Shown: positions 1,315-60,576 of the stretch, in pieces | How the letters are laid out: each line of letters begins with the position of its first letter | How positions within the stretch are numbered: the stretch's first letter is position 1 | Source: Alistipes sp. | Lineage (GTDB): Bacteria; Bacteroidota; Bacteroidia; Bacteroidales; Rikenellaceae | Assembly: GCA_017624955.1 (NCBI GenBank) | Contig: JAGAMA010000002.1 | Location: 31,453-95,452 of the forward strand | Direction of reading: 5' to 3' | Length of the DNA: 64,000 nt | Made by a program: the position numbers and the translations under genes | Notes under the pieces: generated by a model | What the model was told of the DNA's origin: nothing | Seen by the model: only the letters and a program-made list of their open reading frames with translations | Databases searched by the model: none

Positions 1315-1848
1315 ATGCAATCGGAACAGCCGGAAGAGATGATCTGGTTCGCCATGCGGGCCACCTACCGCCGCGAGATGATCGCGAAGCGGGCGCTCGA
1401 AGAGCGCGGTATCGAGAGCTTTGTTCCGATGCGCTATGAATTGAAGCTTCAGGGTGGACGCCGCAAGCGTAAGCTCGTGCCGGCGATCCACAACCTGATC
1501 TTCGTTCACGCCGAGCCCCAGGTGTTGCAGACCGTGAAGGCGCGTCTGCCCTATTTGCAGTACATGATTCGCAAGGGGGGCGAGAAGATTACCGTGCCCG
1601 AGGAGCAGATGCGGCGCTTTATTGCCGTGACGGATAGCCTCGATGCCGGTTTGACCTACTGCAACCCCGAGGAGCTGAAGCTCGAATTGGGGCAGCGCGT
1701 GAAGGTACACGGCGGCCCGTGTGACGGGCAGGAGGGTGTGCTGGTGAAGATACCCGGCTCGCGTTCGCGCCGCGTGGTGGTTGCCATCGAAGGCGTTACG
1801 GCCGTAGCCCTCGCCACGATGAAACCCGAACAGCTGGAGATGCTGTAA
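1315..1848 (+). CDS. UpxY-family transcription antiterminator (NusG paralogue)
   Basis: 177-residue NusG-like protein. An NGN domain spans about 9-105 (WFAMRATYRREMIAKRALEERGI onward, in the usual NusG fold order) and a KOW motif lies at about 125-150 (GQRVKVHGGPCDGQEGVLVKI region). UpxY proteins bind RNA polymerase early in capsular polysaccharide operons and suppress termination in the leader. The start is supported by an AGGAG ribosome site at 1303-1307. Here there is no UpxZ partner and no glycosyltransferase gene; upstream is a transglycosylase and downstream, convergent, a pectate lyase. It is therefore an orphan copy that must act in trans or on a different target. The stop codon is the first triplet of a 7-bp-period array. 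Confidence 0.82.
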   Translation: MQSEQPEEMIWFAMRATYRREMIAKRALEERGIESFVPMRYELKLQGGRRKRKLVPAIHNLIFVHAEPQVLQTVKARLPYLQYMIRKGGEKITVPEEQMRRFIAVTDSLDAGLTYCNPEELKLELGQRVKVHGGPCDGQEGVLVKIPGSRSRRVVVAIEGVTAVALATMKPEQLEML

Positions 1849-2005
1849 GTTAAAAGTTAAAAGTTGAAAGTTGAAAGTTGAGAGTTGAAAGTTTTTTCGT
1901 GCTTTCAGCCGCGCAACAAAAAAAAAGGGAGATAGCCTGACGTTGGCTATCTCCCTTATTGTTGAGCTGACTAATTTTCAACTATCAACTTTTAACTTTC
2001 AACTT
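1847..2005. repeat. Composite intergenic element, copy 1: inverted 7-bp arrays around a hairpin
   Basis: From the UpxY stop codon an array of 7-bp units (AAGTTAA, AAGTTGA and variants) runs to about 1893. A linker (TTTTTTCGTGCTTTCAG) and a hairpin (1925-1957) follow, then an inverted array of CTTTCAA/CTTTTAA units (1976-2005) that runs into the pectate lyase stop codon. The same layout, linker and stem are found in reverse orientation at 39924-40042. This fills the whole gap between two convergent genes. Confidence 0.85.
1925..1957. terminator. Bidirectional terminator hairpin between upxY-like and pectate lyase genes
   Basis: A 13-bp perfect stem (AAGGGAGATAGCC at 1925-1937 with its complement at 1945-1957, loop of 7) preceded by an A run, giving a U run for the minus-strand transcript. 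It serves convergent genes. Confidence 0.7.
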
Positions 2006-4065
2006 TACTGCTGTCCCGTTCCGTTGTCGGCGGCAAAGGGAGCCGATGCGTAGCCCTCCATCTTACCGACACCTGCACCGGCACGCACGATAGCGGCCAC
2101 CTCCGAGGCGCTATCATATACATAGGTATAGGCGGGCTTAAAGTCGGCATAGACGAGCGGTGTGGCGAGCTTCTCGCCGTTGTAGGCCTTCCACTCCAGG
2201 TTCGTGAAGGGGTAGGGGTCGGAGGCATTCGAGGGCTTGTTCGTAAACTCGTTGTTATCGGCATAGAGGTAGCCCGCTACGCTGCCCGTGAGGTTCGATA
2301 CCCACGACGAGCCACTCTTCTTGGCCGGGAAGGTGCAGATGTCGGTCGGCAGGTGTACATTGTCGAAGGCGTTGTGCTCGACGAGCACCATTGCGCCGTA
2401 GGCGCTACCCACGCCGTAGGTCGTGCAGCCGTTGTAGAAGTTGTTGTAAACATGCACCTTGCCGAATCTTACGCGCGGATGGCGGGATGAGGACTCGTCG
2501 AAGAAGTTGTGGTGGAAGGTGGCGGTGATGGCCACATCCTCCGTGGCGGAGTTCGAGTGGCCCACGAGGCTCGATTTCTGCGTCTTGATGTAGTGACACC
2601 AAGATACGGTCACGCCACTCGTGGCGTGCGTAATGTCGCACGAACCATCCTCGTAGTCCTTCTCCTGGTTTACCGACTCGAAGGTGCAGTGATCGACCCA
2701 GACGTTTTTGCTCTCCTGCATCGAGATTCCGTCCGCACCGTTGTCGGCCTTCGGCATGACGATATAGATGTTGCGGATGATGATGTTCTGGGCCTCGTTG
2801 AGGAAGAAGCCGACGTTTTGCATCTTGAACGAATCGGTGCCGTAGATCGTGATGTTGCTCGTACGCTTGATATCGAACCAGGGGCTGTCCGAATCACGAC
2901 CATCCGAGGCGGTAAAGGTGCCGCTGAGCCATACGATGGCCGGGGTGGTCGATTTGTTCTTTTCGCGCAGCTTCAGCCAGTCGCGGAAGGCCGTGCCCGA
3001 GTTGAAGTGGTGGGTATTGGCGGCCGTAGCCCCTGCACCACCCGTCGTCTCTTGGCCGTAGCCATAGATCACCGTCGGATCGACTGCGCCCGCATTCGCG
3101 GTGCAGCTTGCCCGGATCGAGACGAGCTTCAGCAGTGCCCCTTCGGTGGAGGCGTAGAGCGTAATCTCGCCCGATGAGGTTTGCTTCGGGGCGGTAATCG
3201 TTACCGAGGCCTCCTCGACCTTGACACGCCAACCTTCGGGGCGCTCGATGGCGATCTCCTTCACGCCCTGCTGTGTCAGGGCAAAGGTGCGCGTCTCGCC
3301 CGCCTCGAATTTCTCCTGCGGCTCGGCCGTGAGGGAGAAGCGTACCGACCCCGTGATCGGAATCGAGAGCTCCTCGCCCGAGAGGAGCGTGAGGAGCAGC
3401 GTAGTTCCGTCATCGCTTACCTTGGCCGCGAGGAAGAATCCCGTGGGGACTTTGCTCGGGTCGGCCACAATCGGGTCGCCATTGACATCGGTCATGCGTT
3501 GCGGACCGCGACCATCGTGGAGGTCAATGGTCCAAAAGCCCTGCTCGTCGATGCCGAGCGTGGGGGCTGTGCCCTGCGCTCCGTCAGCGCCCGTGCTACC
3601 CGTCTGGCCCTTGTTGCCAAGGCCCTGTACGGGGTTACCCTCCGTGTCGAGGAGCAGTTGCCAGGTCGAGCCATCGTACGAGAGGTACCAATAGCCGTCC
3701 GTGGGGTCGATCTTCAGCAGCGGCATCGAGATCTTGCCCATCTCGCCCACAGCACCCTCCGGTCCGATGTCGCCCGTCTCGCCCTTTGTGCCGGGCGAGA
3801 GGGTGATCGTCGTGCCGTCGTTGTAGGTGATCGTCACCGAGCCCTCCGTTTCGCCGACGGAGGTGATGTAACGCGCTCCGTGGAGCGAGCCGATAAGGGT
3901 TTGATAGCTCTTCAGGTCGTTGTTGATGGCCGTGAGCGAGGCTTGTGCCGCCTCGATACGCTGGCTGAGGTCCTTCAGGTCGTCGCGGAGCGCCGAGTCA
4001 TCATACTCGTCGCCGCAACCCGTCATGAGTAGCGTCGTCAGTAGCAGGTAGAGCAGTTTTCGCAT
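2005..4065 (-). CDS. Pectate lyase lipoprotein (PL1) with N-terminal DUF4988 coiled-coil region
   Basis: 686 residues. A lipobox (LLMTGC, Cys17) predicts an outer-membrane lipoprotein. Residues about 20-60 form a coiled coil, then come beta-rich and Gly-rich collagen-like stretches (GPEGAVGEMG, GSTGADGAQG) typical of the DUF4988 region in gut Bacteroidetes enzymes. The C-terminal half (about 330-650) is a right-handed beta-helix pectate lyase: WVDHCTF near 456 holds the family's conserved Asp-His, and SRHPRVR near 527 is the RxPxxR motif containing the catalytic Arg. It should cut alpha-1,4-polygalacturonate by beta-elimination at the cell surface. The S9 peptidase gene is 37 bases upstream on the same strand. 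The GH105 and second PL1 genes at 60-63 kb would use the products. Confidence 0.88.
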   Translation of the reverse strand: MRKLLYLLLTTLLMTGCGDEYDDSALRDDLKDLSQRIEAAQASLTAINNDLKSYQTLIGSLHGARYITSVGETEGSVTITYNDGTTITLSPGTKGETGDIGPEGAVGEMGKISMPLLKIDPTDGYWYLSYDGSTWQLLLDTEGNPVQGLGNKGQTGSTGADGAQGTAPTLGIDEQGFWTIDLHDGRGPQRMTDVNGDPIVADPSKVPTGFFLAAKVSDDGTTLLLTLLSGEELSIPITGSVRFSLTAEPQEKFEAGETRTFALTQQGVKEIAIERPEGWRVKVEEASVTITAPKQTSSGEITLYASTEGALLKLVSIRASCTANAGAVDPTVIYGYGQETTGGAGATAANTHHFNSGTAFRDWLKLREKNKSTTPAIVWLSGTFTASDGRDSDSPWFDIKRTSNITIYGTDSFKMQNVGFFLNEAQNIIIRNIYIVMPKADNGADGISMQESKNVWVDHCTFESVNQEKDYEDGSCDITHATSGVTVSWCHYIKTQKSSLVGHSNSATEDVAITATFHHNFFDESSSRHPRVRFGKVHVYNNFYNGCTTYGVGSAYGAMVLVEHNAFDNVHLPTDICTFPAKKSGSSWVSNLTGSVAGYLYADNNEFTNKPSNASDPYPFTNLEWKAYNGEKLATPLVYADFKPAYTYVYDSASEVAAIVRAGAGVGKMEGYASAPFAADNGTGQQ

Positions 4066-9359: not shown

Positions 9360-9450
9360 ACCCAATAGGCGGGCTATTTTGATTTAATGGTGCCGTCGGT
9401 GTGAGCTCTTTTGGCATCTTTGCGGACTATGAGCGAATAAAGATAGTAAA

Positions 9451-9545
9451 GAGTTTAAAGAAATTAAGGATATTAAAGAGGCAGTTACTCACTCTTTAAT
9501 ATCCTTAATTTCTTTAGTCTCCTTTAGTCTCCCTTAGCACCCGTT
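9451..9545. repeat. 9-bp-period array forming a perfect 24-bp hairpin
   Basis: Units such as ATTAAGGAT and ATTAAAGAG form a 24-base arm (9457-9480) that is exactly complementary to 9492-9515, with an 11-base loop. Extra CTTTAGTCTC/CCTTAGCAC units continue toward the stop codon of the convergent gene at 9555. It probably also serves as a bidirectional terminator. Confidence 0.8.
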
Positions 9546-19841: not shown

Positions 19842-19880
19842 GTTCATAAAGAGATTAAGGAAATTAAAGAGATTAAAGAG
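19842..19880. repeat. 9-bp-period array after the surface lipoprotein operon
   Basis: ATTAAGGAA, ATTAAAGAG, ATTAAAGAG units start within a few bases of the stop codon at 19838. They are of the same type as the arm at 9457-9480. Confidence 0.7.
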
Positions 19881-24868: not shown

Positions 24869-24910
24869 CAGTGGGCTCAGTTGGCCCAGTAGCCCCAGTG
24901 GCCCCAGACC
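24869..24910. repeat. 9-bp-period CAGTnGCCC array
   Basis: Four units in tandem: CAGTGGGCT, CAGTTGGCC, CAGTAGCCC, CAGTGGCCC, then CAGACC. It is GC-rich, unlike the other intergenic arrays, and lies between convergent genes. Confidence 0.75.
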
Positions 24911-25432: not shown

Positions 25433-27136
25433 CTACTCCTTTGCCGGCTCGATGTAGAACTCGAAGATTAGCGGGCTGTAGGACGGAATCTCAGTCGAGG
25501 TGGTCGTCGTGACTACCTCCTCCTCTGTGTCGTAGGAGTTGTAGTAGTTGCCGTAGTAACCGCTGTAGTAGGGGTCGTAGTAACCGCCACCGTAGTACGA
25601 GTCGTAGTAGTTGCCGTAGTAGCCACCGTAACCGCCATAGCCACCATAGCCGCCCATACCGCCGTAGCCGTAGTAGGAGTTGTAGTAGTTATAGTAGTTC
25701 AGGTAGTTCAGGTAGTCGTAGTAGCTCGACGAGTAGCCCGACGACGAGCTGCTGGTCGCACCATTCTGACCCGATGCACCGTAGCCGAAGGTCGAGGTGG
25801 TGATCAGCGCGCCCCACTGGCCGAAGCGCATCGTGGGAATCGTGTAGTAGAAGGCCTCGATCAGACCGCCCTCCTCGGGCGTGTACTCCAGGGCCGAACC
25901 CTTCGATACCACCTCGCCGTAGATGATCTCCTTCACCTCGTCGATGTTCGTGTCGAAGATAAAGCCGTCGAGGAATCGACCGATGTACCAAATCTTCGCC
26001 TTGCCCGAAAGACCCACCGAGTCGGCACCCTCCTTGACCAGCTCCTCGACACCTGCATAGGGCTCGTCGCTGTGGAAGCGCTCCTTCAGTGCCTCGGCAA
26101 TCTTACGATTCAGTTCCGATACCGAACCCTCGCTGACATAAGGCTCCATGCCGGCGACATAGGGGCCGTACTTTACCTGGCCGTAGGTGGGGTATTTGTT
26201 ATCCACGGTCGATACCTTCTGGTTGAAATCCAGGTCGTAGATCATCTCCTCGGGGGTGGTCGTGGGATCGAAACGGTGGTTTACATAGAGCTGTGCAATC
26301 GTGTCGCAGGCACTCACCCAACGGTTTGCGTTCAGGTGGGGATGGTTCGTGTCCTCCATCGTCGTGGGGATTGCCACCAGCTCCACGCCCTCGACCTCGG
26401 TCGTCTGCTTGTTCTCGCCCTTGTCGTCCTTCGTCGTGTAGATCATCAGACCGCCGTTGGCCTTGCAGAAGGCATCTACATCGAGTGCCTCGCGCTGCAG
26501 GGGGTTCTTTACCGTGTCGCAAATCTCGATCGTGGCGATGAAGGGCTTGCCCTCCTCGAGCGCAAACTGACCCTCGTAACCGCCATCGCCGCCTACCGAA
26601 CCCGTCACGCGCGAAGGCATGTAGAGCATCACCTCCGAGCCGATGCGCAGCAGGTACTTCTCGTCGCTCAATCCCAGCTCGGCACCCTTCGCAGCCAAAA
26701 ACTCGGCACCGAGCTTCTGCTCCTTACGCATCGCAAGCCAGGTGCCCTCGTTGAGCGTGTAGAAGGCATCGCCGCAATACATATAATAAGGTACATAGTG
26801 CGTGTACTTGGTAAACGAACCTGCCAGCTCCGCCTCACGGGCGTTGCGCGTCAGGATGATGTTACCCTGCAGGTCACGACCCGTGAGGTTGAAACGTACC
26901 CAGCAGATCGTGTCGTTGAGCGGCTTGGCTTCCGTGTCGCCCGCATTGAGGATATCGAGGTAGTAGCCGCGCTTGTCATAATCCTGGTAGTTGTCCTTCA
27001 GCTCGGGGCGATGCTGCGAGATCCAGGCCTTGAGCGAAAGGTCCTCGTAGTAGTCGTAATCGTTTGCCGTCTCCTTGGCGCAGGCCGTCATCAGAAGCGC
27101 CGCTACGGCAATCGTGAACAGTTTTTTGAATTGCAT
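25433..27136 (-). CDS. FKBP-like lipoprotein with a long Tyr/Gly-rich insert
   Basis: 567 residues. Lipobox LLMTACA (Cys19). The N-terminal part contains an older FKBP-like stretch (about 60-240; DUF4827-type, NLTGRDLQGNIIL). The C-terminal part reads as a second peptidyl-prolyl isomerase-like fold: GGLIEAFYYTIPTMRFGQWGALITTSTFGYGASG, then IPSYSPLIFEFYIEPAKE, which is the usual FKBP MKVGG..lAYG..IP.nspLiFevel pattern. Between these, residues about 458-536 are a low-complexity Tyr/Gly/Ser/Asn tract (YYGYGGMGGYGGYGG and similar), placed in the loop just before the last strand. A standard FKBP has only a short loop there. The related lipoprotein gene lies 27 bases upstream. Confidence 0.65.
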   Translation of the reverse strand: MQFKKLFTIAVAALLMTACAKETANDYDYYEDLSLKAWISQHRPELKDNYQDYDKRGYYLDILNAGDTEAKPLNDTICWVRFNLTGRDLQGNIILTRNAREAELAGSFTKYTHYVPYYMYCGDAFYTLNEGTWLAMRKEQKLGAEFLAAKGAELGLSDEKYLLRIGSEVMLYMPSRVTGSVGGDGGYEGQFALEEGKPFIATIEICDTVKNPLQREALDVDAFCKANGGLMIYTTKDDKGENKQTTEVEGVELVAIPTTMEDTNHPHLNANRWVSACDTIAQLYVNHRFDPTTTPEEMIYDLDFNQKVSTVDNKYPTYGQVKYGPYVAGMEPYVSEGSVSELNRKIAEALKERFHSDEPYAGVEELVKEGADSVGLSGKAKIWYIGRFLDGFIFDTNIDEVKEIIYGEVVSKGSALEYTPEEGGLIEAFYYTIPTMRFGQWGALITTSTFGYGASGQNGATSSSSSGYSSSYYDYLNYLNYYNYYNSYYGYGGMGGYGGYGGYGGYYGNYYDSYYGGGYYDPYYSGYYGNYYNSYDTEEEVVTTTTSTEIPSYSPLIFEFYIEPAKE

Positions 27137-32194: not shown

Positions 32195-32240
32195 CTTAAA
32201 GTTACTTAAAGTTACTTAAGGTTACTTAAGGGGTTACCCT
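32195..32240. repeat. 10-bp-period array between der and engB
   Basis: CTTAAAGTTA, CTTAAAGTTA, CTTAAGGTTA, CTTAAGGGG: four tandem decamer units, just downstream of the der 3' end. Confidence 0.75.
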
Positions 32241-32251: not shown

Positions 32252-32418
32252 TATTTCTGTCTAAAGTAAATCTGCATCGGTACGCCCTTTTTTTAAGCCT
32301 CCCTTTTCAAAGGGAGGTTTGGAGGGATTGTCTATACCGGATTTTTCGGGTTTGTTGGCGTTCGTCAGCGTGATTCAGTTCCTATTTCTGTCTAAAGTAA
32401 ATCTGCATCGGTACGCCC
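32252..32418. repeat. 36-bp direct duplication of the der 3' end flanking a 95-bp insert
   Basis: 32252-32287 and 32383-32418 are identical (36 bases, the last codons of der on the minus strand). Between them, 32288-32382 carries a hairpin (CCTCCCTTT with AAAGGGAGG) and a 12-base stretch, GGATTTTTCGGG, that is the exact inverted copy of der sequence at 32416-32427. The outer copy would end der with TAA and the inner one with TAG. Confidence 0.85.
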
Positions 32419-33739: not shown

Positions 33740-35827
33740 TTAATTAAAATAGCGCTTCTCGCTTTCGCTGCCCGCCTGTACGGGGTAGAGCAAAATATGG
33801 TTCATGGTGGCGAAGTGCTCCTCGACATAGGCCGGCAGGCGGTGCATGGCGGCGTGGTACGAGATGCGGTCGCGGCGACTCATGATGACCCATACCGAAT
33901 CATCCTCCTTGACATCGCTAAAGAGCGTATCCAAATTCTCCCAGGCGTGCTCCTGCGTGACGTAGTCGGCAATATCGACCTTGCGGGGCTTGCGCTGAAG
34001 GTAGGCGATCGTGGAGGCCGTGCCGTAGAAGATGAGCTTCGCCCCCGTGTCGTGTGCCAGGTGGCGGATGCGCAGTACCCACGTTTCGAAACCCTGCTCC
34101 AGCTCGGCGCGCGGCGGGATGTAGACCAGGTGACGTTTTACGGTCGAGAGGGGCTGCACGGCATGGTAGATGTAGGTCGTGACATTCGTGCGCGAGAGGA
34201 TGGCGGGAATCGTGGTACCCAGCACCGACTCGCGGCCAAGCGTGTTGAGGGCGTTGGCGTGCTCCGGTGCGCGGTGCATGCCGAGCACAAGGTCCGTGAT
34301 GTTGCGCTCGCGTACGACGCTGACGATGGCATTGACGATATTCACGTCGTAGCGCATCAGGCGGTGCATGTGAATACCAGCCGAGGCGGAGGCTTCGGCT
34401 GCCGAGAGGAGCATCTTTTCGGCGGCTGCGACCTGCTCTTCGGAGGCCGATTGGTTATCCAGTGCACGCAGGGCATAGAGGCTGCGGTGCTTCTGCTTCG
34501 TGACGGCAATACCGAGTCCGACCGCCTCGCTGACGGTCTGCGGGTGCGATACGGGGATCAGAACATGTTCGCCCGTCTCGGCACGGCGCTCGGCCTGCGG
34601 CCCCTCGATGGCGATGCGGTGAGCCGCCTGCTGGGTCATAAAGGTCGAGATGGTGCAGGTGACAAGAATCATCAAAATCGTGCCGTTGAGGACCGCCTCG
34701 CCCAGCAGACGAATCGGTGTGCCGTCGGCCTCGTAGCCCAGGATGAGGTTGTAGCCCACCATCACCACGGCCAACGTACCTGCCACATGCGCTACGCTCA
34801 GTCCGAAGAGCATTCTGCGCTGATCGCCCGAGAGGCGGAAGGTCTTGGCCGTCAGGGCAGCAGCGATGTACTTCGAGAGGGTCACCATCACGATCATCAC
34901 GGCGGCCACCTCCAACGTCTCCCAGCCCGAGAAGATGGCTCGGTAGTCGATCAGCATGCCGACACTCAAGAGGAAGAAGGGGATGAAGATGGCGTTACCG
35001 ACAAACTCCACGCGGTTCATCAGGGGCGAAGTCGAGGGGATCAGTCGGTTCATCGCCAAACCTGCGAGGAAGGCTCCGATGATCGGCTCCAGGCCGGCCA
35101 GCTGCGTGAGAAAAGCGCCCGAAAAGACGATGACGAGCACAAAGACATATTGCGAAACATTGTCGCTGCAGCGTTTGAAGAACCAGCGCCCAAGTCGTGG
35201 AAAGAACCACAAAATCACGAAACTACACGCCGCGATCGAGGCACCGAGCCGATACCAAAAGGTCGTGTCGGTGCTTCCCGTGGCAAGCCCCGTAACCACC
35301 GTGAGGGTGACAAGGGCCAGCATATCGACGATGATCGTACCGCCGACGGCAATCGTGACGGCCTTGTCGCGCGTGATGCCGAGCTTCGAGATGATGGGGT
35401 AGGCAATCAGCGTTTGCGAAGCAAAGAGCGCACCCAGCAGGAGCGACGAGGGGAGCGAGTAGCCCAGGATGCCGTAGCCCGAAACTACACCGAAGAGCAT
35501 CGGGAAGATGTAGGTGTAGAGACCAAAGGCCAATGAGCGGACGGAGCTCTGCTTGAAGTCGGCCATATCCATTTCCAGACCGGCCGTAAAGAGGATGTAG
35601 AGCATGCCGGCCGAACCCGAAAGGATGATGCTGCTGTCGCGCAAGACGAGGTTCAGACCATGTGGGCCGATGACGGCACCGGCGATGATCAGTCCTAAGA
35701 GGTAGGGAATCTTCAGCTTGTTCAGCACGAGCGGCGTGAGAAGCACGATCGCCATGATCAGAAGAAACTTCAGGATCGGATCTTCGATCGGCGTGGTGAG
35801 GGCTATATGGGAGGCGAGGGTCAGCAT
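33740..35827 (-). CDS. Cation:proton antiporter (CPA2/KefB-type)
   Basis: 695 residues. The first about 400 residues hold 11-12 membrane helices with CPA2 features (LLGLIIAGAVIGPHGLNL; GAFLAGLAMNRLIP; SAGMLYILFTAGLEMD). The C-terminal about 290 residues are cytoplasmic and lack a clear TrkA-N dinucleotide motif; they look like universal-stress-protein-type alpha/beta repeats (VLIPVSHPQTVSEAVGLGIAV, LVLGMHRAPEHANALNTLGRESVLG), including a region resembling the G-rich USP nucleotide loop. It likely exchanges Na+ or K+ for protons, perhaps gated by a nucleotide. Its promoter is divergent from the next plus-strand operon. Confidence 0.85.
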   Translation of the reverse strand: MLTLASHIALTTPIEDPILKFLLIMAIVLLTPLVLNKLKIPYLLGLIIAGAVIGPHGLNLVLRDSSIILSGSAGMLYILFTAGLEMDMADFKQSSVRSLAFGLYTYIFPMLFGVVSGYGILGYSLPSSLLLGALFASQTLIAYPIISKLGITRDKAVTIAVGGTIIVDMLALVTLTVVTGLATGSTDTTFWYRLGASIAACSFVILWFFPRLGRWFFKRCSDNVSQYVFVLVIVFSGAFLTQLAGLEPIIGAFLAGLAMNRLIPSTSPLMNRVEFVGNAIFIPFFLLSVGMLIDYRAIFSGWETLEVAAVMIVMVTLSKYIAAALTAKTFRLSGDQRRMLFGLSVAHVAGTLAVVMVGYNLILGYEADGTPIRLLGEAVLNGTILMILVTCTISTFMTQQAAHRIAIEGPQAERRAETGEHVLIPVSHPQTVSEAVGLGIAVTKQKHRSLYALRALDNQSASEEQVAAAEKMLLSAAEASASAGIHMHRLMRYDVNIVNAIVSVVRERNITDLVLGMHRAPEHANALNTLGRESVLGTTIPAILSRTNVTTYIYHAVQPLSTVKRHLVYIPPRAELEQGFETWVLRIRHLAHDTGAKLIFYGTASTIAYLQRKPRKVDIADYVTQEHAWENLDTLFSDVKEDDSVWVIMSRRDRISYHAAMHRLPAYVEEHFATMNHILLYPVQAGSESEKRYFN

Positions 35828-38975: not shown

Positions 38976-39944
38976 GTGGGCTTCGCCGACGAAAAATGGT
39001 TTGTGATTGTCAATCCCGTGGCCGGAGGAGGTCGCGGGCTTGACCACTTTCCGCTCATCTCGCGCCTGCTGCGTGAAGCGGGTGTACATGCCGAGCCGGT
39101 CTTCACGGAGCATAAGTTCCACGCCGTGGAGCTGACCGTGTCGGCCGTCAAGGAGGGCTACCGCCATATTATCGTGGTGGGTGGCGACGGTACGCTGCAT
39201 GAGGTGGTGAACGGCCTCTTCATTCAGCAGGAGGTGGCTCCCGATGCCGTGTTGCTGGCGATGATCCCTGTGGGTACGGGCAACGACTGGGCGCGCTCGT
39301 TCGGCACCTCGAACCGCTACCAGGATGCCGTGCGGAATATCGTGGAGGGCGAGGCCTTCCTGCAGGATGTGGGGCAGGTGAGCTACGAGGAGTCGCAATA
39401 CCGCCAGACACGCTATGTGGCCAATGTGGCGGGTGTGGGGTTCGATGCCCATGTCATTCGTCAAATCTCCCACCAGGAGAAGCGTGGCTTCACGCGCCGT
39501 TGGCACTATACGATCAACCTCCTGCGCTCCTACTTCGGCTATAAATCGACCGGCATCAAGATTTGGGTCGATGACAAGCGGGTCTTCAACGGCCTCTTGT
39601 TCTCGATTGCACTCGGTATCTGTAAGTACAACGGAGGCGGTATTCAGCAGCTGCCCGATGCGGTGGCCGATGACGGCATGTGGGATGTGACGCTCGTCAA
39701 GCCGATCCATATTTGGCATGTCTTGTTCCGCCTGAAGTACCTCTACAATGGCGGTATCTACCGCATCGGCCATGTGCGCCATGCGCGCGGTTCGAAGATC
39801 CGCATCGAATCCACGCCCGAGGTCTCGTTGGAGGCCGATGGCGAACTGCTGGGCGAAACACCGCTCGAATTCACGATCCTGCCCCGTGCCATTCGGGTCG
39901 TAGTGAGCAAGGAATTTGCAGAGAAGTTGAGAGTTGAAAGTTGA
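38976..39944 (+). CDS. Diacylglycerol/lipid kinase family protein (YegS/BmrU-like)
   Basis: 322 residues beginning with GTG at 38976, three bases after the pepD stop (frame and spacing fit; no ATG nearby). The DAGK catalytic domain shows VIVNPVAGGGRG (about 10-21), the GGDGTLHEVVNG ATP loop (about 69-80) and VGTGNDWARS (about 103-112). The family phosphorylates diacylglycerol or related lipids, returning them to phospholipid synthesis. The last codons (EFAEKLRVES) are read from the 7-bp-period array, so the stop codon lies inside the repeat element. Confidence 0.88.
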   Translation: MGFADEKWFVIVNPVAGGGRGLDHFPLISRLLREAGVHAEPVFTEHKFHAVELTVSAVKEGYRHIIVVGGDGTLHEVVNGLFIQQEVAPDAVLLAMIPVGTGNDWARSFGTSNRYQDAVRNIVEGEAFLQDVGQVSYEESQYRQTRYVANVAGVGFDAHVIRQISHQEKRGFTRRWHYTINLLRSYFGYKSTGIKIWVDDKRVFNGLLFSIALGICKYNGGGIQQLPDAVADDGMWDVTLVKPIHIWHVLFRLKYLYNGGIYRIGHVRHARGSKIRIESTPEVSLEADGELLGETPLEFTILPRAIRVVVSKEFAEKLRVES

Positions 39945-40042
39945 AAGTTAGCTCAACAAAAAGGAGATAGCCAACGGTTTAGGCTATCTCCTTTTTGTTG
40001 AGCGGATAAAAGCACGAAAAAACTTTCAACTTTTAACTTTGA
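39924..40042. repeat. Composite intergenic element, copy 2 (inverted relative to copy 1)
   Basis: AAGTTGA units (39924-39949) overlap the lipid-kinase stop codon. Then comes a perfect 21-bp stem (39952-39972 with 39982-40002, 9-base loop), and a linker with AGCACGAAAAAACTTTCAA before CTTTTAA units (about 40020-40042). Its reverse complement matches 1847-2005 including the linker and GGAGATAGCC stem. Confidence 0.85.
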
Positions 40043-40043
40043 C

Positions 40044-40110
40044 CTGCCTTTGGCAGCTCGACTTTGCTTCGCCTCGGCAAAGTCCGCAAGCGGCCTCTGC
40101 ACTCGGCTTA
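40044..40110. other. Two short hairpins before the lipoprotein gene end
   Basis: CTGCC..GGCAG (around 40044-40056) and GACTTTGC..GCAAAGTC (about 40061-40086) are followed by GC-rich non-coding sequence ending at the 40126 stop. No gene is visible. It may act as the terminator for the convergent genes. Confidence 0.5.
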
Positions 40111-40125
40111 ATCGCAAAGTTCAAC

Positions 40126-40746: not shown

Positions 40747-40839
40747 AAAGGAGGCTAAAGGAAGCGAAAGGTGACTAAGGGGTTGCTTGAATCGCCCTTA
40801 ATCACCTTTAGTAGCCTTAATAGCCTTTAATAGCCTTTA
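40747..40839. repeat. 10-bp-period inverted array at the 3' end of pnuT
   Basis: Left arm GGCTAAAG-type units (40747-40783) and right arm CCTTTAATAG-type units (40794-40839) can form a long hairpin. The right arm contains the pnuT stop codon. Confidence 0.8.
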
Positions 40840-43893: not shown

Positions 43894-44020
43894 AAAATTA
43901 ATAATTAATAATTAAGAATGAAGAATTATTTAAGGTTGCTAAAGGTTGCTAAAGGTGACTAAGGGGTTGCTTTAATCACCCTTAGTCACCCTTAGTCACC
44001 TTTAATTACCCTTAATAACC
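43894..44020. repeat. 7-bp A/T array followed by a 10-bp-period inverted array
   Basis: AATTAAT, AATTAAT, AATTAAG, AATGAAG units (43897-43926) are followed by decamers of TAAAGGTTGC type (43931-43970) and their inverted partners (43976-44020). The whole gap to the antiporter stop codon at 44032 is repeats, promoter and riboswitch, with no gene. Confidence 0.8.
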
Positions 44021-44031
44021 CTTTCTGCCTC

Positions 44032-47964: not shown

Positions 47965-48063
47965 ATAGCGTTGCTAAAGGGAGTTAAGGGTGAGAAGGGC
48001 ATCAAGGGCGTGAAGGTTTTTCCCTTTCTGCCTTTCTCTAATTCTTAATTTTTAATTTTTAAT
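47965..48063. repeat. Mixed array at the 3' end of xylB
   Basis: GTTGCTAAAGG, GAGTTAAGGG and related units with CCTTTCTGCC (about 47970-48037), then 7-bp units TTCTTAA, TTTTTAA, TTTTTAA (48041-48063). The last ones encode the final residues and stop of xylB. Confidence 0.65.
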
Positions 48064-49542
48064 TTTCATTTCTACCTCGGCCTTCCACTTCTCGTAGCTC
48101 TTCTCGAGCGCCTCACGGTCCTCCTCACGCGGCTCTACGACCTCCAGGCACTTAAGCGACGAGAAGGCCTCCTCGCGCGACGAGTAGAACCCTGCACCGA
48201 GGGCTGCACCACGCGCAGCACCCAACGAGCCGTCCGTGTTGAAGAGCTCGATGCGGGCACCCGTCAGCGTTGAGAGGGTCTGACGGAAGAGGGGCGAGAG
48301 GAAGAGGTTGGCCTTGCCGGCACGAATCACATCGGGCTTCAGCCCCAGCTCACGCATCAGGTCGATGCCGTAGCGGAACGAGAAGGCGATACCCTCCTGC
48401 GCGGCACGCAGGATGTGGGCCGTCGAGTGGCGATTCAGGTCGATGCCTACCACCGCAGCACCCGTCGTGCGGTTCTCCAAGACACGCTCCGCACCATTAC
48501 CGAAGGGGAGCACCACCAGTCCGTCCGAACCTACGGGAGCCTGCTCGGCGAGGGCATTCATCTCCACATAGTCGAGCGTCTGCTGCGCAACATGGCGGCG
48601 CATCCACGAATTGAGGATACCCGTGCCGTTGATGCAGAGCAGGATGCCGTAGCGGGGTGTTTCGGGGGTATGATTGACATGTACAAAGGTATTCACGCGC
48701 GAGAGTGAGTCGGCCTTGGGGGTATCTACCACACCATACACCACGCCACTCGTGCCACCCGTGGCAGCAATCTCGCCGGCCTCCATCACGTTGAGCGAGA
48801 AGGCGTTGTTGGGCTGGTCGCCTGCGCGGTACGAAATCGGCGTACCCTCGGGGATACCCAGCAGCTCCTCCGTGGCCTTGTCGGTCGTAGCCTCCACACC
48901 GATCGACACGCCCGCATCGGGAATCATGTGATGCGGAATGCCGTAGTAGTCGGCCACGAAGTCGGCGCGCTTCTCCTCCTTGAAGTCCCAGAGGATCTGC
49001 TCCGAAAGACCGCTTACGGAGGTCGAAACCTTGCCCGAGAGGCGGTAGGCAATGTAGTCGCCCGGCAGGATGAACTTGTCGATTTGAGCAAACAGCTCCT
49101 CCTCGTTGCGCTTTACCCACGCCAATTTCGAGGCGGTGAAGTTACCCGGCGAGTTGAGGGCATGCTCCAGGCAGAAGTCACGACCAATGGCCTCCAGGGC
49201 CTCGGCACCGATCTCTACGGCACGCGAGTCGCACCAGATGATCGCCTTGCGCAGGGGCTTCTGCTCCTTGTCGAGACACACTAGGCCGTGCATCTGATAG
49301 GTAATACCGATCGAGGCTACCTCGCTCATCGGGTGCTCCGCAGCAATTTTTCGGATGCCCTCGACGGCATATTTCCACCACATCTCGGGATCCTGCTCGG
49401 CCCAGCCGCTCTTGACGGCATCAATGGGCATCTCCTGGCTCGGGTTGGTCGACGAGGCGACACATACACCCGTCTCGATATCCATCAGTGACACCTTCAC
49501 CGACGAGGAGCCGACATCAATTCCTAAACTTGTTTTGCTCAT
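48052..49542 (-). CDS. xylB: Xylulokinase
   Basis: 496 residues, FGGY-family kinase. Phosphate-binding loop GIDVGSSSVKVSLMD (about 7-21), catalytic base region VGYRAGDQPNNAFSLN (Asp in the AGDQ motif) and the ATP motif GGTSGVVYG (about 264-272) followed by FGNGAERV. It converts D-xylulose to D-xylulose 5-phosphate. It is the first gene after xylR; its 3' end (…EMKIKN) is read from an A/T heptamer array, so the natural end may have been altered by repeat insertion. A strong palindrome lies in its leader. Confidence 0.93.
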   Translation of the reverse strand: MSKTSLGIDVGSSSVKVSLMDIETGVCVASSTNPSQEMPIDAVKSGWAEQDPEMWWKYAVEGIRKIAAEHPMSEVASIGITYQMHGLVCLDKEQKPLRKAIIWCDSRAVEIGAEALEAIGRDFCLEHALNSPGNFTASKLAWVKRNEEELFAQIDKFILPGDYIAYRLSGKVSTSVSGLSEQILWDFKEEKRADFVADYYGIPHHMIPDAGVSIGVEATTDKATEELLGIPEGTPISYRAGDQPNNAFSLNVMEAGEIAATGGTSGVVYGVVDTPKADSLSRVNTFVHVNHTPETPRYGILLCINGTGILNSWMRRHVAQQTLDYVEMNALAEQAPVGSDGLVVLPFGNGAERVLENRTTGAAVVGIDLNRHSTAHILRAAQEGIAFSFRYGIDLMRELGLKPDVIRAGKANLFLSPLFRQTLSTLTGARIELFNTDGSLGAARGAALGAGFYSSREEAFSSLKCLEVVEPREEDREALEKSYEKWKAEVEMKIKN

Positions 49543-49594
49543 ACCTTATTTTTTCTTTATTTTCGATTTTATGCGGCACCTTTCGCCCTTATTT

Positions 49595-49643
49595 GTCCGG
49601 CCTGAATGGGAAATACGCTTAGTATGTCCCATCCAGCCCGAAC
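49595..49643. promoter_or_regulatory. Large imperfect palindrome in the xylB leader
   Basis: Centred at 49619, the core ATGGGA-A-ATAC-GCTTA-GTAT-G-TCCCAT (49606-49632) has 10 of 11 arm pairs besides the central bases, and outer flanks extend the match (GGCCTG with CAGCCC). A near-match of ATACGCTAA (ATACGCTTA, 49613-49621) lies at its centre. It may be an operator or an mRNA hairpin about 65-125 bases upstream of xylB. Confidence 0.6.
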
Positions 49644-49732
49644 TGCATAATGACAAAATCTGCTCGCCTAAAATCAAAAATGGGTTCTAATCAAACTTTT
49701 TTATAAAAGCCACCAAGGCTGCGAATCCTTCA

Positions 49733-49763
49733 TTTTGAATGCTAAATTCTAAATTTTGAATTC
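49733..49763. repeat. 7-bp A/T array at the xylR stop
   Basis: TAAATTC, TAAATTT, TGAATTC units just before the xylR stop codon at 49767. Confidence 0.6.
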
Positions 49764-49766
49764 TCT

Positions 49767-55221: not shown

Positions 55222-55259
55222 AGGTATAATTCTAAATTTTGAATGCTGAATTTTGAATT
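55222..55259. repeat. 7-bp A/T array at the DUF4450 gene stop
   Basis: TCTAAAT, TTTGAAT, GCTGAAT, TTTGAAT units directly next to the stop codon at 55259. Confidence 0.65.
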
Positions 55260-58200
55260 TATTCTTCCACCGTGATACCCATCAGGCCGATCACGACATC
55301 GTTCGAGAGGCTCTCCAGGTGGAGCGATCGCAGCTCCTTCGTCGGGTCAATCGCCATCTCGACGAGCGTGGCCGCACCGCCCGGAATCATGCGGTTGATC
55401 CCCTCGATGCCCATATCCTTGTCCAGCGTGCGGCTCAGCGTGCCGTTCTGGAGCGAGAGTCGCCACAGGGCGGGCGCACGGTACGAGTAGCCGTCGTTGA
55501 TGCCCACCTGCTCGATCGAGGCCCAATTGTCGGGGTTCACCAGATCGAGCGTCGAGGTCGTGCCGTCGGCGTAGTGCACCGTGAGGCGACCGTTGGCGAT
55601 GTGGCTCTGCATGTGGTTTGTCGAGCCGGCCATCATCAGCAGGAGCTTTTGACCGCGTCCCGTGAGGGGAACTTCGGCCGTCGTGGGGTAGTTGTCCCAG
55701 AGCGAGGTGTAGAGCACATTCTCGGCCGCATAAGCCATGCGCATCGGGATTTGGTTGCGCTCGATGACTCCCGTACGCGCATCGACTGCGTTTTGGCGCA
55801 GGATATCGCGTAGCCCCTGATCATCGATCTCGGCCATCGCCTGCGGGTGACACCAGTCGCCATAGCCCTGCTGGGGGATTTGGAGCGTGGTGGCCTTCGG
55901 GCGGGGCGAGAGATATTCGTTGCGATAGATGTCGCTCACCGAAGCGTTGTAGTAGGGCGTGAGATCCACCGTGCGGTAGGCGGTCGGAGTCGGTCGCTCG
56001 ATGACGGGCGTGGGACGATAGACCCCCTGCTGTAACGGCTCATAGAAGGCGAGGTTGTTCTGCTCCGCGATGCGGAAACCCTTCGGGCCTTGGGTGTAGG
56101 TGGTGGCGGGCTGCTCCGCGTGGTGTCGAATCACCACCTTGTAGTGATCCTTCCACCCCAGGCGGATGCGGATGCGCGGTTTGCCGTATGCGTGTTCCAC
56201 CTCCTCGTAGTTTACGCGACGACCATTGACCCTCACTTCGGCCACCCGTGCACCATCCACAACGAGGTGAATTGCCGTGCGCGTGGGGTAGTTGTGGCGG
56301 ATCGAGTAGGTGCTCTTCAGTCCCTCGCGGAGGAACGAGTAGGAGAGGTCGCGGTGGCGAATCGATGCCTCGTCCCAGGCTTCGGGGAAGCCCGGCTGGA
56401 GGGTAACTTCATCGGCCAACAGGTCGGGGCGGATGCCGAAAAGACCCTCCGTGAGGGCACGTGACCAGACACCGATCGGGTCGGCAAAGTCGCGGTAGCA
56501 CTCCCCACGCGCGGCATCGAGGTAGCTGATCTGCCCGAAGTTCAGGGGCGTGGTGCCGAGGTACATGTTGTCCATCGCCACACCCTTCATCAGGTGGAAG
56601 GCCTCCTCGTTCATGCCGGCCTGCCAATAGGCCAGCGCAGCGTGCATCACCTCGGCGATGGCTACGTTGTTGATCGACCAGATGTAGGGCTGCCAATCGG
56701 AGGTGGCGGGGAGCAGATACTCCTCCTCAAAGTCGGTCGAACGGACGGGAAGCAGCGGCAGCTCGCGTTGGGCATAGAGAGCCGAGGCAGCCGCATGCAG
56801 GGGCGTGCCGACCTCCGAGTCGATGGCGTGGTAGATGCTCCACATGGCCGCCGAGGTATGGAGGCGCTTGTGGCCCATGCCGTCGCGGTATTCGGCCCAG
56901 TGGTTACCTTGCGGGTCCCAGAGCTGTTCGAGCATCGCCTTTTCGATCGCTTCGGCCTCCCGACGGTAGGGGGCAGCATCTTCGCCGATGCGCTCGGCAA
57001 TGCGGGCTACCTCATGGTTAGCGAAGTAGTTGTAGGCCGAGGAGTGGGTGGCGGCACCTCCGTTGTAGTAGAGGGCATCGCTTGCCCAGATGCAGCAGTA
57101 GCCGTCGTAGAGGTGGTCGCCATCGGGGTCGAAGTTGCGCTTCTCCCACTCGAGGTGGAGCTTGAGTGTCGGGAACATCTCGCGCATGAACGCCTCGTCA
57201 CCCGTTGCGCGGATGTGGCGCAGCAGGGCATCGATATAGACTAAGTTCATGTCGTAGTGCGACATCTCGCGCTTACCCGGACGGCGGCAGATGTAGCCGT
57301 TGCTGTACATCGGTGTTCCCCACCTCTTCTCGGCACGCGCCAGGTTCAAGGTCGAGTCTTGGCGCGGATGGTCGAATACGGGCTCAACATCACGCACCAT
57401 GTTGTCGGCATAGGTGCGGAAGTGGGTCTGTGCGCGGTCGTGCCAGCCGAGCGCTGTGCCGACATAAGCGCCTCGCCATCCGAGGTGCTCGGTGCGCCAA
57501 CCAATCGCGCCATGCAACCAGGTGCGACCGCTCCAGATGCCGTCGGCAGCGATCGCCATCGCTTCGCCCACGGGGTTGAGCCACGGATCGGGGGTCGAGA
57601 TCGAGAGCGTTTCGCTCAAAGCCGTGCGTTGCTTGTCGGCAGTCGCAAAGAGCGCCTTAAGCGCCTTCTGCGAGTGTGCCTTTTCGGCACGCGGGAAGTA
57701 GGCCAGGTAGCGCACCTCTTTTGCTTTGAGTGTTACTTCGCCCGTTAGATGAGGTAGGCGGCTCAACTTCTTGTTTTCGAGCGGAAGAATCAGCGTGATG
57801 CTGCCCGGTGTTTTGGCCTCGTAGCTCACGCCGACAAGGTCGCCCTCCAGCCTGTATTGGTTGGTGGTACACTGCGCAGGATCGAACGAAAAAGCCTCCG
57901 GATCATCCACACCCAGGTCGCCGTTGCGATAGAACTTCTTGCCGCTTACGGCGCCAAATTGCACACCGATCCGCTGCGACTTTTTGGTCGTGTTCTCGAT
58001 GCGCCACAAGGCGACATCTTCGCCCTCGCGCATGATCTGCACCTCGACGGCAATGCCCCCTTGCAGGTAGTTCATCTTGCCCGGGGTATAGCGCGCCTCG
58101 CAATCTCCCTCGGGGAGCGAAAGTTGCAGATTGCCTCCCATGCCCGGCAGGTAGATGCCGAACTCGGTGCAGTCGCTGCACTCGACACGAAAACCCGTGT

Positions 58201-58427: not shown

Positions 58428-58488
58428 TTGAATTTAGAATTCAGCAACTGAATTACAAATTCTAAATTTTGAATTTTGCAGTTCGAAT
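58428..58488. repeat. A/T repeat tract between the DUF4450 and six-hairpin genes
   Basis: GAATTTA, GAATTCA, AAATTCT, AAATTTT, GAATTTT units reach the stop codon at 58489. It resembles the arrays at 49733 and 55222. Confidence 0.6.
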
Positions 58489-60576
58489 TTACGGCAACGG
58501 CTTAATGCCCTCCCAGCGTACATCCCACTCGCCATTCTTCGGGAAACCGGGGTTCTTCTCGTTGCAACCATCCCAACCGGCGCACATCAAGGCTACGGCG
58601 GTCAAGAGACCTCCGTTACCGGGCAGGTAGCAACGCAGACGGGCATCCTGGAAGTTGTGGCCGTTCTTTAGGCAGGTGTTCGTGCGCTTCGACATCAAGA
58701 GGGCAGCCACGGCATTCTCTCTTTCGCCCAGGCGCGTAGCGTTCATCGAAACCATCGGGTAGTCCCAGCCCCAGGTCTTCTCCCAATTCCACTTGTCCCA
58801 AATCCACTCCTGGGTCTGCTTCATGATCGTGGGATCGACCAGGCGCGAATGGGGGAAGATGCCCACGGCACCCAATACGGCGGGATGGTCCGACGTGAAG
58901 CGGATATCCTCATAGGTCTGCGGTGCGGTCTCGGCAGCGAGGTAGAGGCCATCCTTCGAGGCCAGGGGCGAGAGCTTGGCCAGCAGGTCGTCCCACTCCG
59001 GATTGCGCTCCTTGCCGAGGCGCTCACGCCAGCGCTGAGCCATCGACATCACGCAGTGCCACTGCGACAATTCGAAGGGGGGATTGATGGTCTCCGAGGC
59101 ACGCAGGGTCTCCTGGGCGGGAATCACACCGCGCAGCTCGTAGCGATCCGATTCGGGGTTGTAGTCGGCAAAGTCGTACATGAAGTTGGCGGTCTCCTCC
59201 ACCAGCTCGGCATACTCGTTCAGCAGCTCCTCGGAGGGGTTGGCGCGGTAGCAAAGCTCCAGGAGGTAGATCAGGTGGGGCTGCTGCCAGATGAGGAACG
59301 AACCGGTCTTCGAGGGGGCCTCCATGGCCGTCGGGTCGGTCATCTTCATCCAACGCACGCCCTCGAAGCCCTGGCGCTCGGCGATGTGACGAGCACCATC
59401 GGCAGCCGAGTGGTACCACTTCAGGGTGCGCAGCAGCAGATCCTCATGGCCGTAAAGGGCAAACTGTGCCTGGTGCCAATAGATCATCTCGAGGTGGAAT
59501 TTGCCAAACCACGAGTTATAGGTAAGACCCGTCTCCTGCGGCGGGGTCGGACCGGCGCACTGCACAGCCAGCAGATACTGCGAGAGGACTACGCGGCGCT
59601 CCAGCTCCTTGGCGCGGGGATCGGTGCAGTGGCTGAAATCAACCACGCCGCCCTTCATCCAGAAGTTGTTCCAGAACGCGGTGGCAGCACCCTCGACGGC
59701 GAGGATATCCTGCTGCTCGGCCGTGGCCTTCGTCTCCTGCGGCGTAAAGTGGGCAGCGATGGTCCAGCGATCCTCCTCGGGGGTCAGCGTGAAGTGGTTG
59801 CGACCCTTTTGGGCGATCGTGGCCTTACCTGTCCAGTCGAGGCGGACGTAGTAGCGTGCCGTGTCAATCGTGCGCAGCAGTGTAGCCGACTGCTCGGTCG
59901 AGGCTACAAGCTCCGTGGAGTGCTTCTCGTCGGCTGCCCAGTTGCTGGCATCGTCGGTGTGTGCTCCCGTCGGGTAGGCAAAGCGAATGGCGATGGGCAG
60001 GTGCTTCTTGCCCTCGATCGAGGCGGTGAAACGATCTGCATCGGGATCGCAGGCGGTCGTGACGGCGATCTTCTCGCCCTCGGTCGTGAACGACGAGCGG
60101 ATCACACCATCCATCAGGTCGAGCGTCTGGTCGATCTCGGTCAGCTCCGCAGGGTTCAGCCCCTCGAAACCAACCACGCCCAGGTGCAGGCGGTGGGGGT
60201 TGATGCGATACCAATCGGCGGCATCCTTGCCACGACCCTCACGGGGCTGGGTGGCATAAGGCTCAATCTGGCCATGACCGAAGTCGTAGTCGCGGAGTGT
60301 CTCCTCGTGGCGGTAGTTCTCGGGGTTGTCGAACGAGTGCCAGCCCCAGCTGCTTTGCGTGCCTAAGGGGAGGCCCTTGCTGTAGAATTCGGGGAAGGAT
60401 TGCAGACCCGTGACATCGACCGTCACGGCAAAACCGCCGTTGCCGACCGTCAGCGAGTTGAGCGTATCGACCTCCGAGAGGTGGGGGTTGTTGCGCTCCA
60501 GAAGCGCCACGCGGTCAATCGGTTGCGTGTTGCAGCCCATCAAAAAGAGGGCGGCTGCGAAAAGTAGTTTCTTCAT
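58489..60576 (-). CDS. (alpha/alpha)6-barrel glycosidase-like lipoprotein
   Basis: 695 residues. Lipobox ALFLMGC (Cys15). The N-terminal region has GNGGFAVTVDVTGLQSFPEFYSKGLPLGTQSSWGWHSF, a beta-sandwich as in six-hairpin glycosidases; the second half (about 330-690) is helical with GLTYNSWFGKFHLEMIYWHQAQFALYG, SKTGSFLIWQQPHLIYLLELCYR and GWDYPMVSMNATRLGE, which resemble GH65/GH78/GH95-like barrels. The catalytic acid may be the Glu of KFHLEMIYWH or a nearby Asp, but I cannot fix it. Not a family I can name exactly. It lies 23 bases from the PL1 gene, so probably acts on pectin fragments. Confidence 0.6.
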   Translation of the reverse strand: MKKLLFAAALFLMGCNTQPIDRVALLERNNPHLSEVDTLNSLTVGNGGFAVTVDVTGLQSFPEFYSKGLPLGTQSSWGWHSFDNPENYRHEETLRDYDFGHGQIEPYATQPREGRGKDAADWYRINPHRLHLGVVGFEGLNPAELTEIDQTLDLMDGVIRSSFTTEGEKIAVTTACDPDADRFTASIEGKKHLPIAIRFAYPTGAHTDDASNWAADEKHSTELVASTEQSATLLRTIDTARYYVRLDWTGKATIAQKGRNHFTLTPEEDRWTIAAHFTPQETKATAEQQDILAVEGAATAFWNNFWMKGGVVDFSHCTDPRAKELERRVVLSQYLLAVQCAGPTPPQETGLTYNSWFGKFHLEMIYWHQAQFALYGHEDLLLRTLKWYHSAADGARHIAERQGFEGVRWMKMTDPTAMEAPSKTGSFLIWQQPHLIYLLELCYRANPSEELLNEYAELVEETANFMYDFADYNPESDRYELRGVIPAQETLRASETINPPFELSQWHCVMSMAQRWRERLGKERNPEWDDLLAKLSPLASKDGLYLAAETAPQTYEDIRFTSDHPAVLGAVGIFPHSRLVDPTIMKQTQEWIWDKWNWEKTWGWDYPMVSMNATRLGERENAVAALLMSKRTNTCLKNGHNFQDARLRCYLPGNGGLLTAVALMCAGWDGCNEKNPGFPKNGEWDVRWEGIKPLP

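What the first reader, a model, noticed from the sequence alone, without database searches (positions are those of the whole stretch)
1847..58491. Short-period tandem arrays (7, 9 or 10 bp) that abut or overlap stop codons across the window
At about a dozen places, arrays of 7-bp (AAGTTGA; TTTTTAA; TCTAAAT), 9-bp (ATTAAAGAG) or 10-bp (TAAAGGTTGC) units begin within a few bases of a stop codon or contain it: upxY-like 1848, PL1 2005, barrel protein 9555, PCMD operon 19838, lipid kinase 39944, pnuT 40837, Ca antiporter 44032, xylB 48052, xylR 49767, DUF4450 55259, six-hairpin 58489, der region 32240. Sequences differ but period, position and inverted-arm layout recur. That they lie at 3' ends and not in promoters is seen in the sequence. 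It suggests either an insertion mechanism that targets gene ends/terminators or a selected role in 3' mRNA ends. I know similar intergenic microsatellites occur in Bacteroidales genomes, but I know of no account of the stop-codon placement.
Basis: seen in the sequence. Interest (0 to 1): 0.7.

Follow-up and report, generated by a model that had tools for sequence, protein, structure and literature searches.

The report
Short DNA repeats fill gene ends
Between the genes of this gut bacterium sit many short stuttering repeats that often run right up to a stop codon and nearly always point the same way, a pattern described before in unrelated bacteria, so it is a new example of a known but unexplained kind of genome clutter.

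Summary
The arrays are real and far beyond chance: 86 in 223 sampled gaps against 2.5 in shuffles. Ten of the twelve cited sites lie within 10 bp of a stop. In 1.34 Mb from three related Alistipes genomes, 93 of 268 arrays end within 10 bp of a stop (51.7 expected from random placement), 17 near a start (28.6 expected). The finding missed a strong polarity: neighbouring arrays run purine-rich then pyrimidine-rich in 59 pairs, the reverse in 3. Relatives often have shorter, array-free orthologous gaps, so arrays are added DNA, in a lineage-specific burst. They do not replace terminator hairpins, and their arms show no sign of selection for RNA pairing. Insertion into compact gaps can account for most of the stop placement if every gap is equally likely to be hit, not if every base is. 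Placement and strand rule were already published for heptamer repeats in Xanthomonas and Nostoc (PMC4692102), so 'no account' fails. New here: Bacteroidota, several unit families of 7, 9 and 10 bp, some without any G-run, and inversion of a terminator core between inverted arrays. What sets the polarity remains open.

The parts
1847..1893 (+). AAGTTGA array (7 bp) sharing the AA of the TAA stop of the NusG-domain (upxY-like) gene
1910..1967 (.). core of dispersed element A: terminator hairpin GGGAGATAGCC...GGCTATCTCCC between the two heptamer arms
1976..2006 (-). inverted AAGTTGA array reaching the stop of the pectate-lyase gene
9438..9479 (+). 9-bp TAAAGATAT-type purine-rich array
9512..9537 (-). 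10-bp CTTTAGTCTC pyrimidine-rich array, 17 bp from the stop at 9555
19847..19880 (+). 9-bp TAAAGAGAT array 8 bp after the stop of the PCMD-domain gene
24869..24907 (.).
32195..32229 (.). 10-bp CTTAAAGTTA array upstream of the gene 31558-32160, not at a stop
39924..39949 (+). AAGTTGA array overlapping the stop of the lipid-kinase gene (DAGK_cat)
39950..40020 (.). element A core with its one-sided tail; in the orthologous gap of G024 it lies in the opposite orientation, in G033 in the same one
40021..40040 (-). inverted heptamer arm of element A
40747..40771 (+). 10-bp purine-rich array of a purine-to-pyrimidine cluster
40786..40839 (-). 10-bp array reaching the stop of the pnuT-like gene (NMN_transporter)
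43896..43956 (+). AATTAAG array followed by a 10-bp AAGGTTGCTA array
43972..44023 (-). 10-bp TTAATCACCC array, 8 bp from the stop of the Na/Ca exchanger gene
47977..48016 (+). 9-bp AAGGGCGTG array in the spacer behind the FGGY-kinase (xylB-like) gene
48034..48066 (-). AATTAAA heptamers containing the stop of the FGGY-kinase gene; absent in G024, G020 and G008, whose gaps are 44-50 bp
49738..49764 (-). AATTTAG-type heptamers 2 bp from the stop at 49767
55235..55260 (-). AATTCAA-type heptamers overlapping the stop at 55259
58465..58490 (-). AATTCAA-type heptamers overlapping the stop at 58489; no array in the orthologous gap of G024

Best explanation
These are intergenic short-tandem-repeat arrays that spread in a recent burst in a small clade of Alistipes. 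Shown: repeats have been added to gaps that lack them in relatives; units come from a few families shared across the genome; copy number changes by whole units in at least one orthologous pair; cores between inverted arrays flip. Inferred: arrays arise or arrive at many places, but persist only where they break nothing, that is outside coding DNA, outside promoters and leaders, and beside rather than inside the terminator hairpin. In compact gaps this leaves mainly the few bases behind a stop codon. Arrays extend to the last constrained base, and the AA of a TAA stop is absorbed because many units begin with AA. No function in termination is needed. What causes the purine-outward polarity and the dispersal of units is not known.
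For: Excess over shuffles. Convergent 49/106, co-directional 97/411, divergent 16/113 gaps with arrays. Presence and absence between relatives: of 74 gaps comparable in G024 and G033, 18 have arrays only in G033, 2 only in G024, 9 in both, 45 in neither; of 61 for the own genome and G033, 2, 4, 17 and 38 (own only, G033 only, both, neither); of 23 for the own genome and G024, 5, 1, 4 and 13. Median length gain with arrays is 108 bp in 23 pairs and 34 bp in 9. Exact 7-bp indels in both arms of one G024/G033 pair. AAGTTRA x3 in 10 of 101 genus genomes, with 24-60 hits in four of them and at most 8 in the other six. CTAARGGNNN x3: 73, 87 and 36 hits in G000, G033 and G297, 0-5 in ten other chosen genomes, reversed-pattern control 0. 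Hairpins about as frequent with as without arrays. Geometry null 0.49 against 0.53 observed in convergent gaps. Edge offset -2 at 24 stops, 21 of them TAA.
Against: With a per-base null the stop placement is not explained (0.21 expected, 0.53 observed), and random redistribution within present gaps expects 31.9 touched stop ends against 93. The polarity (59 to 3) is not explained by tolerance. In 75 other loci arrays show stop proximity and polarity but no difference between convergent, co-directional and divergent gaps (0.66, 0.60, 0.63 per kb). 22 of 52 arrays that overlap a stop reach more than 2 nt into the gene, up to the 20-nt limit of the scan. No mobilising enzyme was identified.
Confidence: 0.6

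Rival explanations
1. The arrays are selected 3'-end structures: inverted arms fold in the mRNA and terminate transcription or protect 3' ends, in both directions in convergent gaps.
For: Purine-to-pyrimidine polarity matches that of ordinary hairpins in array-free convergent gaps (left arm purine-rich 42, pyrimidine-rich 6, equal 2). Arms pair better than shuffled arms in 33 of 47 clusters. Element A carries a hairpin terminator.
Against: Arms pair no better with their own partner than with partners from other clusters (21 of 47, p 0.88; other strand 20 of 47, p 0.92); G-U 32 against A-C 36 in co-directional gaps, 16 against 17 in convergent ones. Ordinary hairpins persist beside arrays. A cluster sits in the short spacer behind the FGGY-kinase gene, where three relatives have 44-50 bp and no array.
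Confidence: 0.12
2. A mobile element family inserts specifically at stop codons or terminators, with the heptamer arrays as its terminal inverted repeats.
For: Element A has a shared core at 9 places in 1.34 Mb, 8 of them convergent gaps. Heptamer families read outward from gene ends 103 to 10.
Against: Apart from element A, the 55 clusters listed share no core that I could see and often mix families. No Y1 transposase in 11 genomes; no reverse-transcriptase domain in G000, G024, G033 or G297, though G264 and G059 have one. By eye no constant target duplication in the alignments. Other transposase families were not searched.
Confidence: 0.17
3. Array clusters are repair scars: both 3' ends at a break are extended with purine-rich short repeats and then joined, which gives purine-then-pyrimidine clusters with independent arms.
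For: Polarity holds more than 15 bp from both genes (29 to 3); families on the two sides are mixed, same period in 18 of 47 clusters against 15.8 expected.
Against: No enzyme candidate; the reverse-transcriptase domain is absent from the array-rich genomes searched. Does not explain lone arrays within 15 bp of a stop, which are purine-outward 35 to 4 (4 mixed).
Confidence: 0.06

Closest known systems
Heptameric GGGAATC / GGGGA(C/T)T repeats of Xanthomonas and Nostoc (Rehm and colleagues 2015, PMC4692102; passages and sections 13, 15 and 16 seen)
   Same: 7-bp units, intergenic, close to or overlapping stop codons on the coding strand, near starts on the non-coding strand, few between divergent genes, inverted pairs occur, length varies between relatives.
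   Different: Those units are G-rich and fold as quadruplexes in vitro; the Alistipes AAGTTRA, AATTAAN and AATTYAN units have no G-run, and there are 9- and 10-bp families too. Most Xanthomonas repeats lie between the same genes in two species; here presence often differs between relatives.
TAACTGA direct repeats of Beggiatoaceae, Cyanobacteria and five Bacteroidetes (MacGregor 2015, PMC4679880; abstract, passages and section 12 seen)
   Same: Intergenic heptamers, in some cases absent in close relatives with shorter gaps, some next to stop codons.
   Different: Mostly just upstream of start codons in the Beggiatoaceae genome studied; one unit sequence only.
BrickBuilt MITE of Porphyromonas gingivalis (Klein and colleagues 2015, PMC4596501; abstract and first part of section 7 seen)
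   Same: Bacteroidales, intergenic, tandem repeats within a dispersed element.
   Different: 23-bp units with IS5-like terminal inverted repeats; 49-591 bp from coding sequences.

Membership tests
Stop-proximal intergenic heptamer repeats (Xanthomonas/Nostoc type) | tandem units of 7 bp in intergenic DNA | tested here: met
   132 of 268 arrays have period 7; the rest are mostly 9 and 10
Stop-proximal intergenic heptamer repeats (Xanthomonas/Nostoc type) | close to stops on the coding strand, near starts on the non-coding strand | tested here: met
   four heptamer families read outward from gene ends 103, inward 10; 68 of 70 within 10 bp of a stop are outward
Stop-proximal intergenic heptamer repeats (Xanthomonas/Nostoc type) | rare between divergent genes | tested here: inconclusive
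   met in the burst clade, 16 of 113 gaps; not in 75 other loci
Stop-proximal intergenic heptamer repeats (Xanthomonas/Nostoc type) | G-tracts able to form quadruplexes | tested here: not met
   AAGTTRA, AATTAAN and AATTYAN units hold no G-run (units); some 10-bp units hold GG or GGG
MITE / BrickBuilt | fixed terminal inverted repeats and target duplications | tested here: inconclusive
   most clusters mix families and share no ends by eye; no constant duplication seen by eye; element A alone has a shared core
REP elements spread by RAYT | RAYT (Y1) transposase in the genome | tested here: not met
   0 of 11 genomes; drafts 83-99% complete
Intrinsic terminators | paired arms kept by selection | tested here: not met
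   own arms no better than swapped arms; G-U about equal to A-C (47 clusters without element A); the core of element A is itself a terminator-like hairpin

The most novel reading that the evidence does not exclude
A general rule holds in unrelated phyla: short tandem arrays between genes point their purine-rich strand away from the gene end into the gap, whatever the unit sequence. This would mean that a common mutational or repair process makes them with fixed polarity (for example purine-rich 3' end extension from both sides of a break), and that quadruplexes are not the cause.
Probability: 0.2. Interest if true: 0.75.

Novelty: new variant of a known kind. Interest (0 to 1): 0.45.

Why it matters
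The same placement and strand rule in Alistipes, with units of which several cannot form quadruplexes, speaks against the quadruplex reading discussed for Xanthomonas and Nostoc and points to a more general cause. Relatives that differ by whole arrays make gain, loss, unit turnover and core inversion directly measurable. Such arrays may also disturb short-read assembly and gene-end annotation (inference).

Tried and rejected
Terminator role: rejected as the main cause, because arms show no matched pairing and hairpins persist. Stop codons in all frames as the selected feature: units such as AAAGAGG and ATTCAAA hold no stop yet obey the rule. Native composition as the source of polarity: array-free 3' flanks are only 51-58% purine in the first 30 bases (printed before that script failed at a later step). 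Loss of mismatch repair: MutS domain present in 11 of 11 genomes. RAYT and reverse transcriptase: not found in the array-rich genomes. Invasion of coding ends: the last six residues differ slightly more beside arrays (0.75 identity in 25 pairs of 21 genes against 0.83 in 228 controls; p 0.08 for the difference from the preceding residues); 30 of 52 stop-overlapping arrays reach only 1-2 nt into the gene. Rfam at gathering thresholds found nothing in the window.

Papers: searches with no paper found were Bacteroides with REP and RAYT, Bacteroidetes with heptamer and transcription termination, and five of six terms on tandem repeats, convergent genes and stop codons. The Alistipes search (4 listed), the Term-seq search (6 listed) and the Bacteroidales search (10 of 65 listed) showed no further paper on this judging by titles and abstract starts only. 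The library holds open-licence papers only.

Dropped before counts: gaps under 30 or over 1500 bp; arrays under 2.5 copies or outside periods 6-11; four loci lying in G024, G033, G020 and G008 (loci of G012, G007 and G059 stayed in); eight element A clusters; the 11 of 32 discordant pairs with under 30 bp length difference. The pairs are not independent (one insertion in G033 can appear in two comparisons), and its pairs 1, 7, 12 and 17 look like differences in gene calls or coding-like DNA, not array insertions. 45 of 268 arrays fitted no family. The reversed-pattern control is not a clean control: the reversed heptamer pattern describes the same arrays (for example 20 and 24 control against 29 and 36 pattern hits).
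Full report
What was checked. TRF finds arrays at or beside all twelve cited places; ten touch or lie within 10 bp of the stop, the sites at 9555 and at the der region do not (sequences). The window is contig C41:31453-95452 of a 2.1 Mb draft genome. Of ten window proteins scanned with Pfam, eight have a family. xylR, DUF4450 and six-hairpin were not tested.

Beyond chance. In 464 kb of the own genome (window plus 400 kb) I called genes with a home-made hexamer model and ran TRF on 223 gaps: 86 arrays of period 6-11 against a mean of 2.5 in 20 dinucleotide-preserving shuffles; coding DNA has 0.10 per kb. The larger set is 673 kb of the own genome, 434 kb of G033 and 232 kb of G024, with 630 gaps and 268 arrays, of periods 7 (132), 10 (70), 9 (47), 8 (10), 11 (7) and 6 (2).

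Placement. Arrays occur in 49 of 106 convergent, 97 of 411 co-directional and 16 of 113 divergent gaps. Ends within 10 bp: 93 at stops (random placement 51.7, sd 6.1), 17 at starts (28.6, sd 4.8). With the residual bases redistributed at random in present gaps, 93 stop ends against 31.9 and 17 start ends against 18.5. The most frequent offset is -2 (24 cases, 21 at TAA), so the array takes in the AA of the stop. But array-free gaps are compact: a random insertion into array-free convergent gaps, sparing hairpins, lands within 10 bp of a stop in 49% (gaps weighted equally) or 21% (bases weighted equally); 47 of 88 arrays (53%) do so. In co-directional gaps the equal-gap expectation is 39-75%, depending on how much is kept free before the start, and the per-base one 8-12%, with 46 of 150 arrays (31%) observed. 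In the 21 discordant pairs shown (chosen for a difference of at least 30 bp) the array-free gap has a median of 50 bp, which favours the equal-gap view. I therefore read the stop placement as mostly geometry and tolerance, without excluding targeting.

Polarity. Neighbouring arrays on one strand run purine-rich then pyrimidine-rich 59 times and the reverse 3 times; a further 43 adjacent pairs are of the same or of mixed kind (one search counts). More than 15 bp from both genes it is still 29 to 3, and 5 to 0 in divergent gaps. The heptamer families AAGTTRA, AATTAAN, AATTYAN and AARGAGN read outward from the nearest gene end 103 times and inward 10; the 10-bp family TAARGGNNN 42 to 21 and mostly in the interior. 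Ordinary hairpins in array-free convergent gaps have the same polarity, 42 to 6, in co-directional gaps 31 to 19, but in divergent gaps 2 to 7; coding stems show none, 19 to 20.

Comparison between relatives. The gap behind the FGGY-kinase gene is 134 bp with arrays in the own genome, 193 bp with partly other arrays in G033, and 44-50 bp without arrays in G024, G020 and G008. Of 74 gaps comparable in G024 and G033, 18 have arrays only in G033, 2 only in G024, 9 in both, 45 in neither; of 61 for the own genome and G033, 2 own only, 4 G033 only, 17 both, 38 neither; of 23 for the own genome and G024, 5, 1, 4 and 13. Length gain with arrays: median 108 bp in 23 pairs and 34 bp in 9. Whole-unit 7-bp indels are visible in both arms of one orthologous pair. 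Families come in bursts: AAGTTRA x3 in 10 of 101 genus genomes and 13 of 198 in a phylum sample, own genome included; CTAARGGNNN x3 in 5 of 13 chosen genomes. The next relative outward, G020, has no array in 11 gaps of one locus (L074).

Element A. Two window gaps (1849-2004 and 39945-40125) hold a dispersed element: heptamer arms on either side of a terminator-like hairpin. A fuzzy pattern finds nine copies in the 1.34 Mb, eight in convergent gaps. In each of the three orthologous gaps that hold it in two or three genomes a piece is inverted: the core in G024 against the own genome and G033; the core in the own genome (C36:86264) against G033; and only the loop in G024 (C3:19456) against G033. 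Inverted arrays, and the hairpin arms themselves, thus act as flip points.

Function tests. For 47 clusters without element A, arms pair better than shuffled arms (33 of 47) but no better than arms swapped between clusters (21 of 47, p 0.88; means -14.0 and -13.0 kcal/mol), and G-U and A-C mismatches are about equal. A non-array hairpin is present in 35 of 49 convergent gaps with arrays and 44 of 57 without; in co-directional gaps in 30 of 97 and 46 of 314, or 24% and 21% when matched for non-array length. These speak against a selected RNA role.

Elsewhere. In 75 other loci, mostly Alistipes or Rikenellaceae with some more distant Bacteroidota, 96 arrays show stop proximity (22 against 12.9), start avoidance (5 against 11.9) and polarity (12 to 2), but no difference between gap types (0.66, 0.60, 0.63 per kb).

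Literature. Rehm and colleagues 2015 (PMC4692102; [quoted passage not shown] This is the same rule. MacGregor 2015 (PMC4679880; abstract, passages, section 12) reports heptamers in five Bacteroidetes and shorter repeat-free gaps in close relatives. Klein and colleagues 2015 (PMC4596501; abstract and first part of section 7) report BrickBuilt.

Limits. Gene calls are home-made, start positions are less certain than stops, genomes are drafts, repeats may be collapsed or cut by assembly, family assignment is by simple patterns (45 of 268 unassigned), and the comparison covers a third of the own genome.

Noticed in passing
window about 49560-49680; also gaps in own genome C13 at 85169, C36 at 76328, C41 at 16889: A dispersed repeat of roughly 120 bp with inverted ends (TTCGATTTTATA... 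and ...CTAAAATCAAAAA), seen in four gaps; MITE-like.
   Followed up: no
window about 32295-32336; also the gap at own genome C13 60860, and a similar one at C36 56050: A palindromic repeat CCTCCCTTTTCAAAGGGAGG followed by TTTGGAGGGATTGTCTATA recurs in other gaps.
   Followed up: no
window 32253-32287 and 32384-32418: A 35-bp piece that looks like the end of der occurs twice beyond the end of the called der reading frame (stop at 32492).
   Followed up: no
window about 40041-40119: A piece of nearly 80 bp lies within the right heptamer arm of element A; similar pieces sit in other gaps of G033 and the own genome.
   Followed up: no
own genome C15 about 34834-35520 (in L022): The gap looks by eye like a cobalamin riboswitch; not tested against Rfam.
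   Followed up: no
10-bp family in G033 and the own genome: The 10-bp unit is a fixed CTAARGG plus a variable triplet; in 21 arrays adjacent triplets agree in 30% of 73 cases against 9% expected, and one array alternates TTA and GAG.
   Followed up: partly
window 63861-63985 and 25532-25744: Longer or overlapping tandem repeats apart from the arrays studied (42 and 21 bp; 3 to 24 bp).
   Followed up: no
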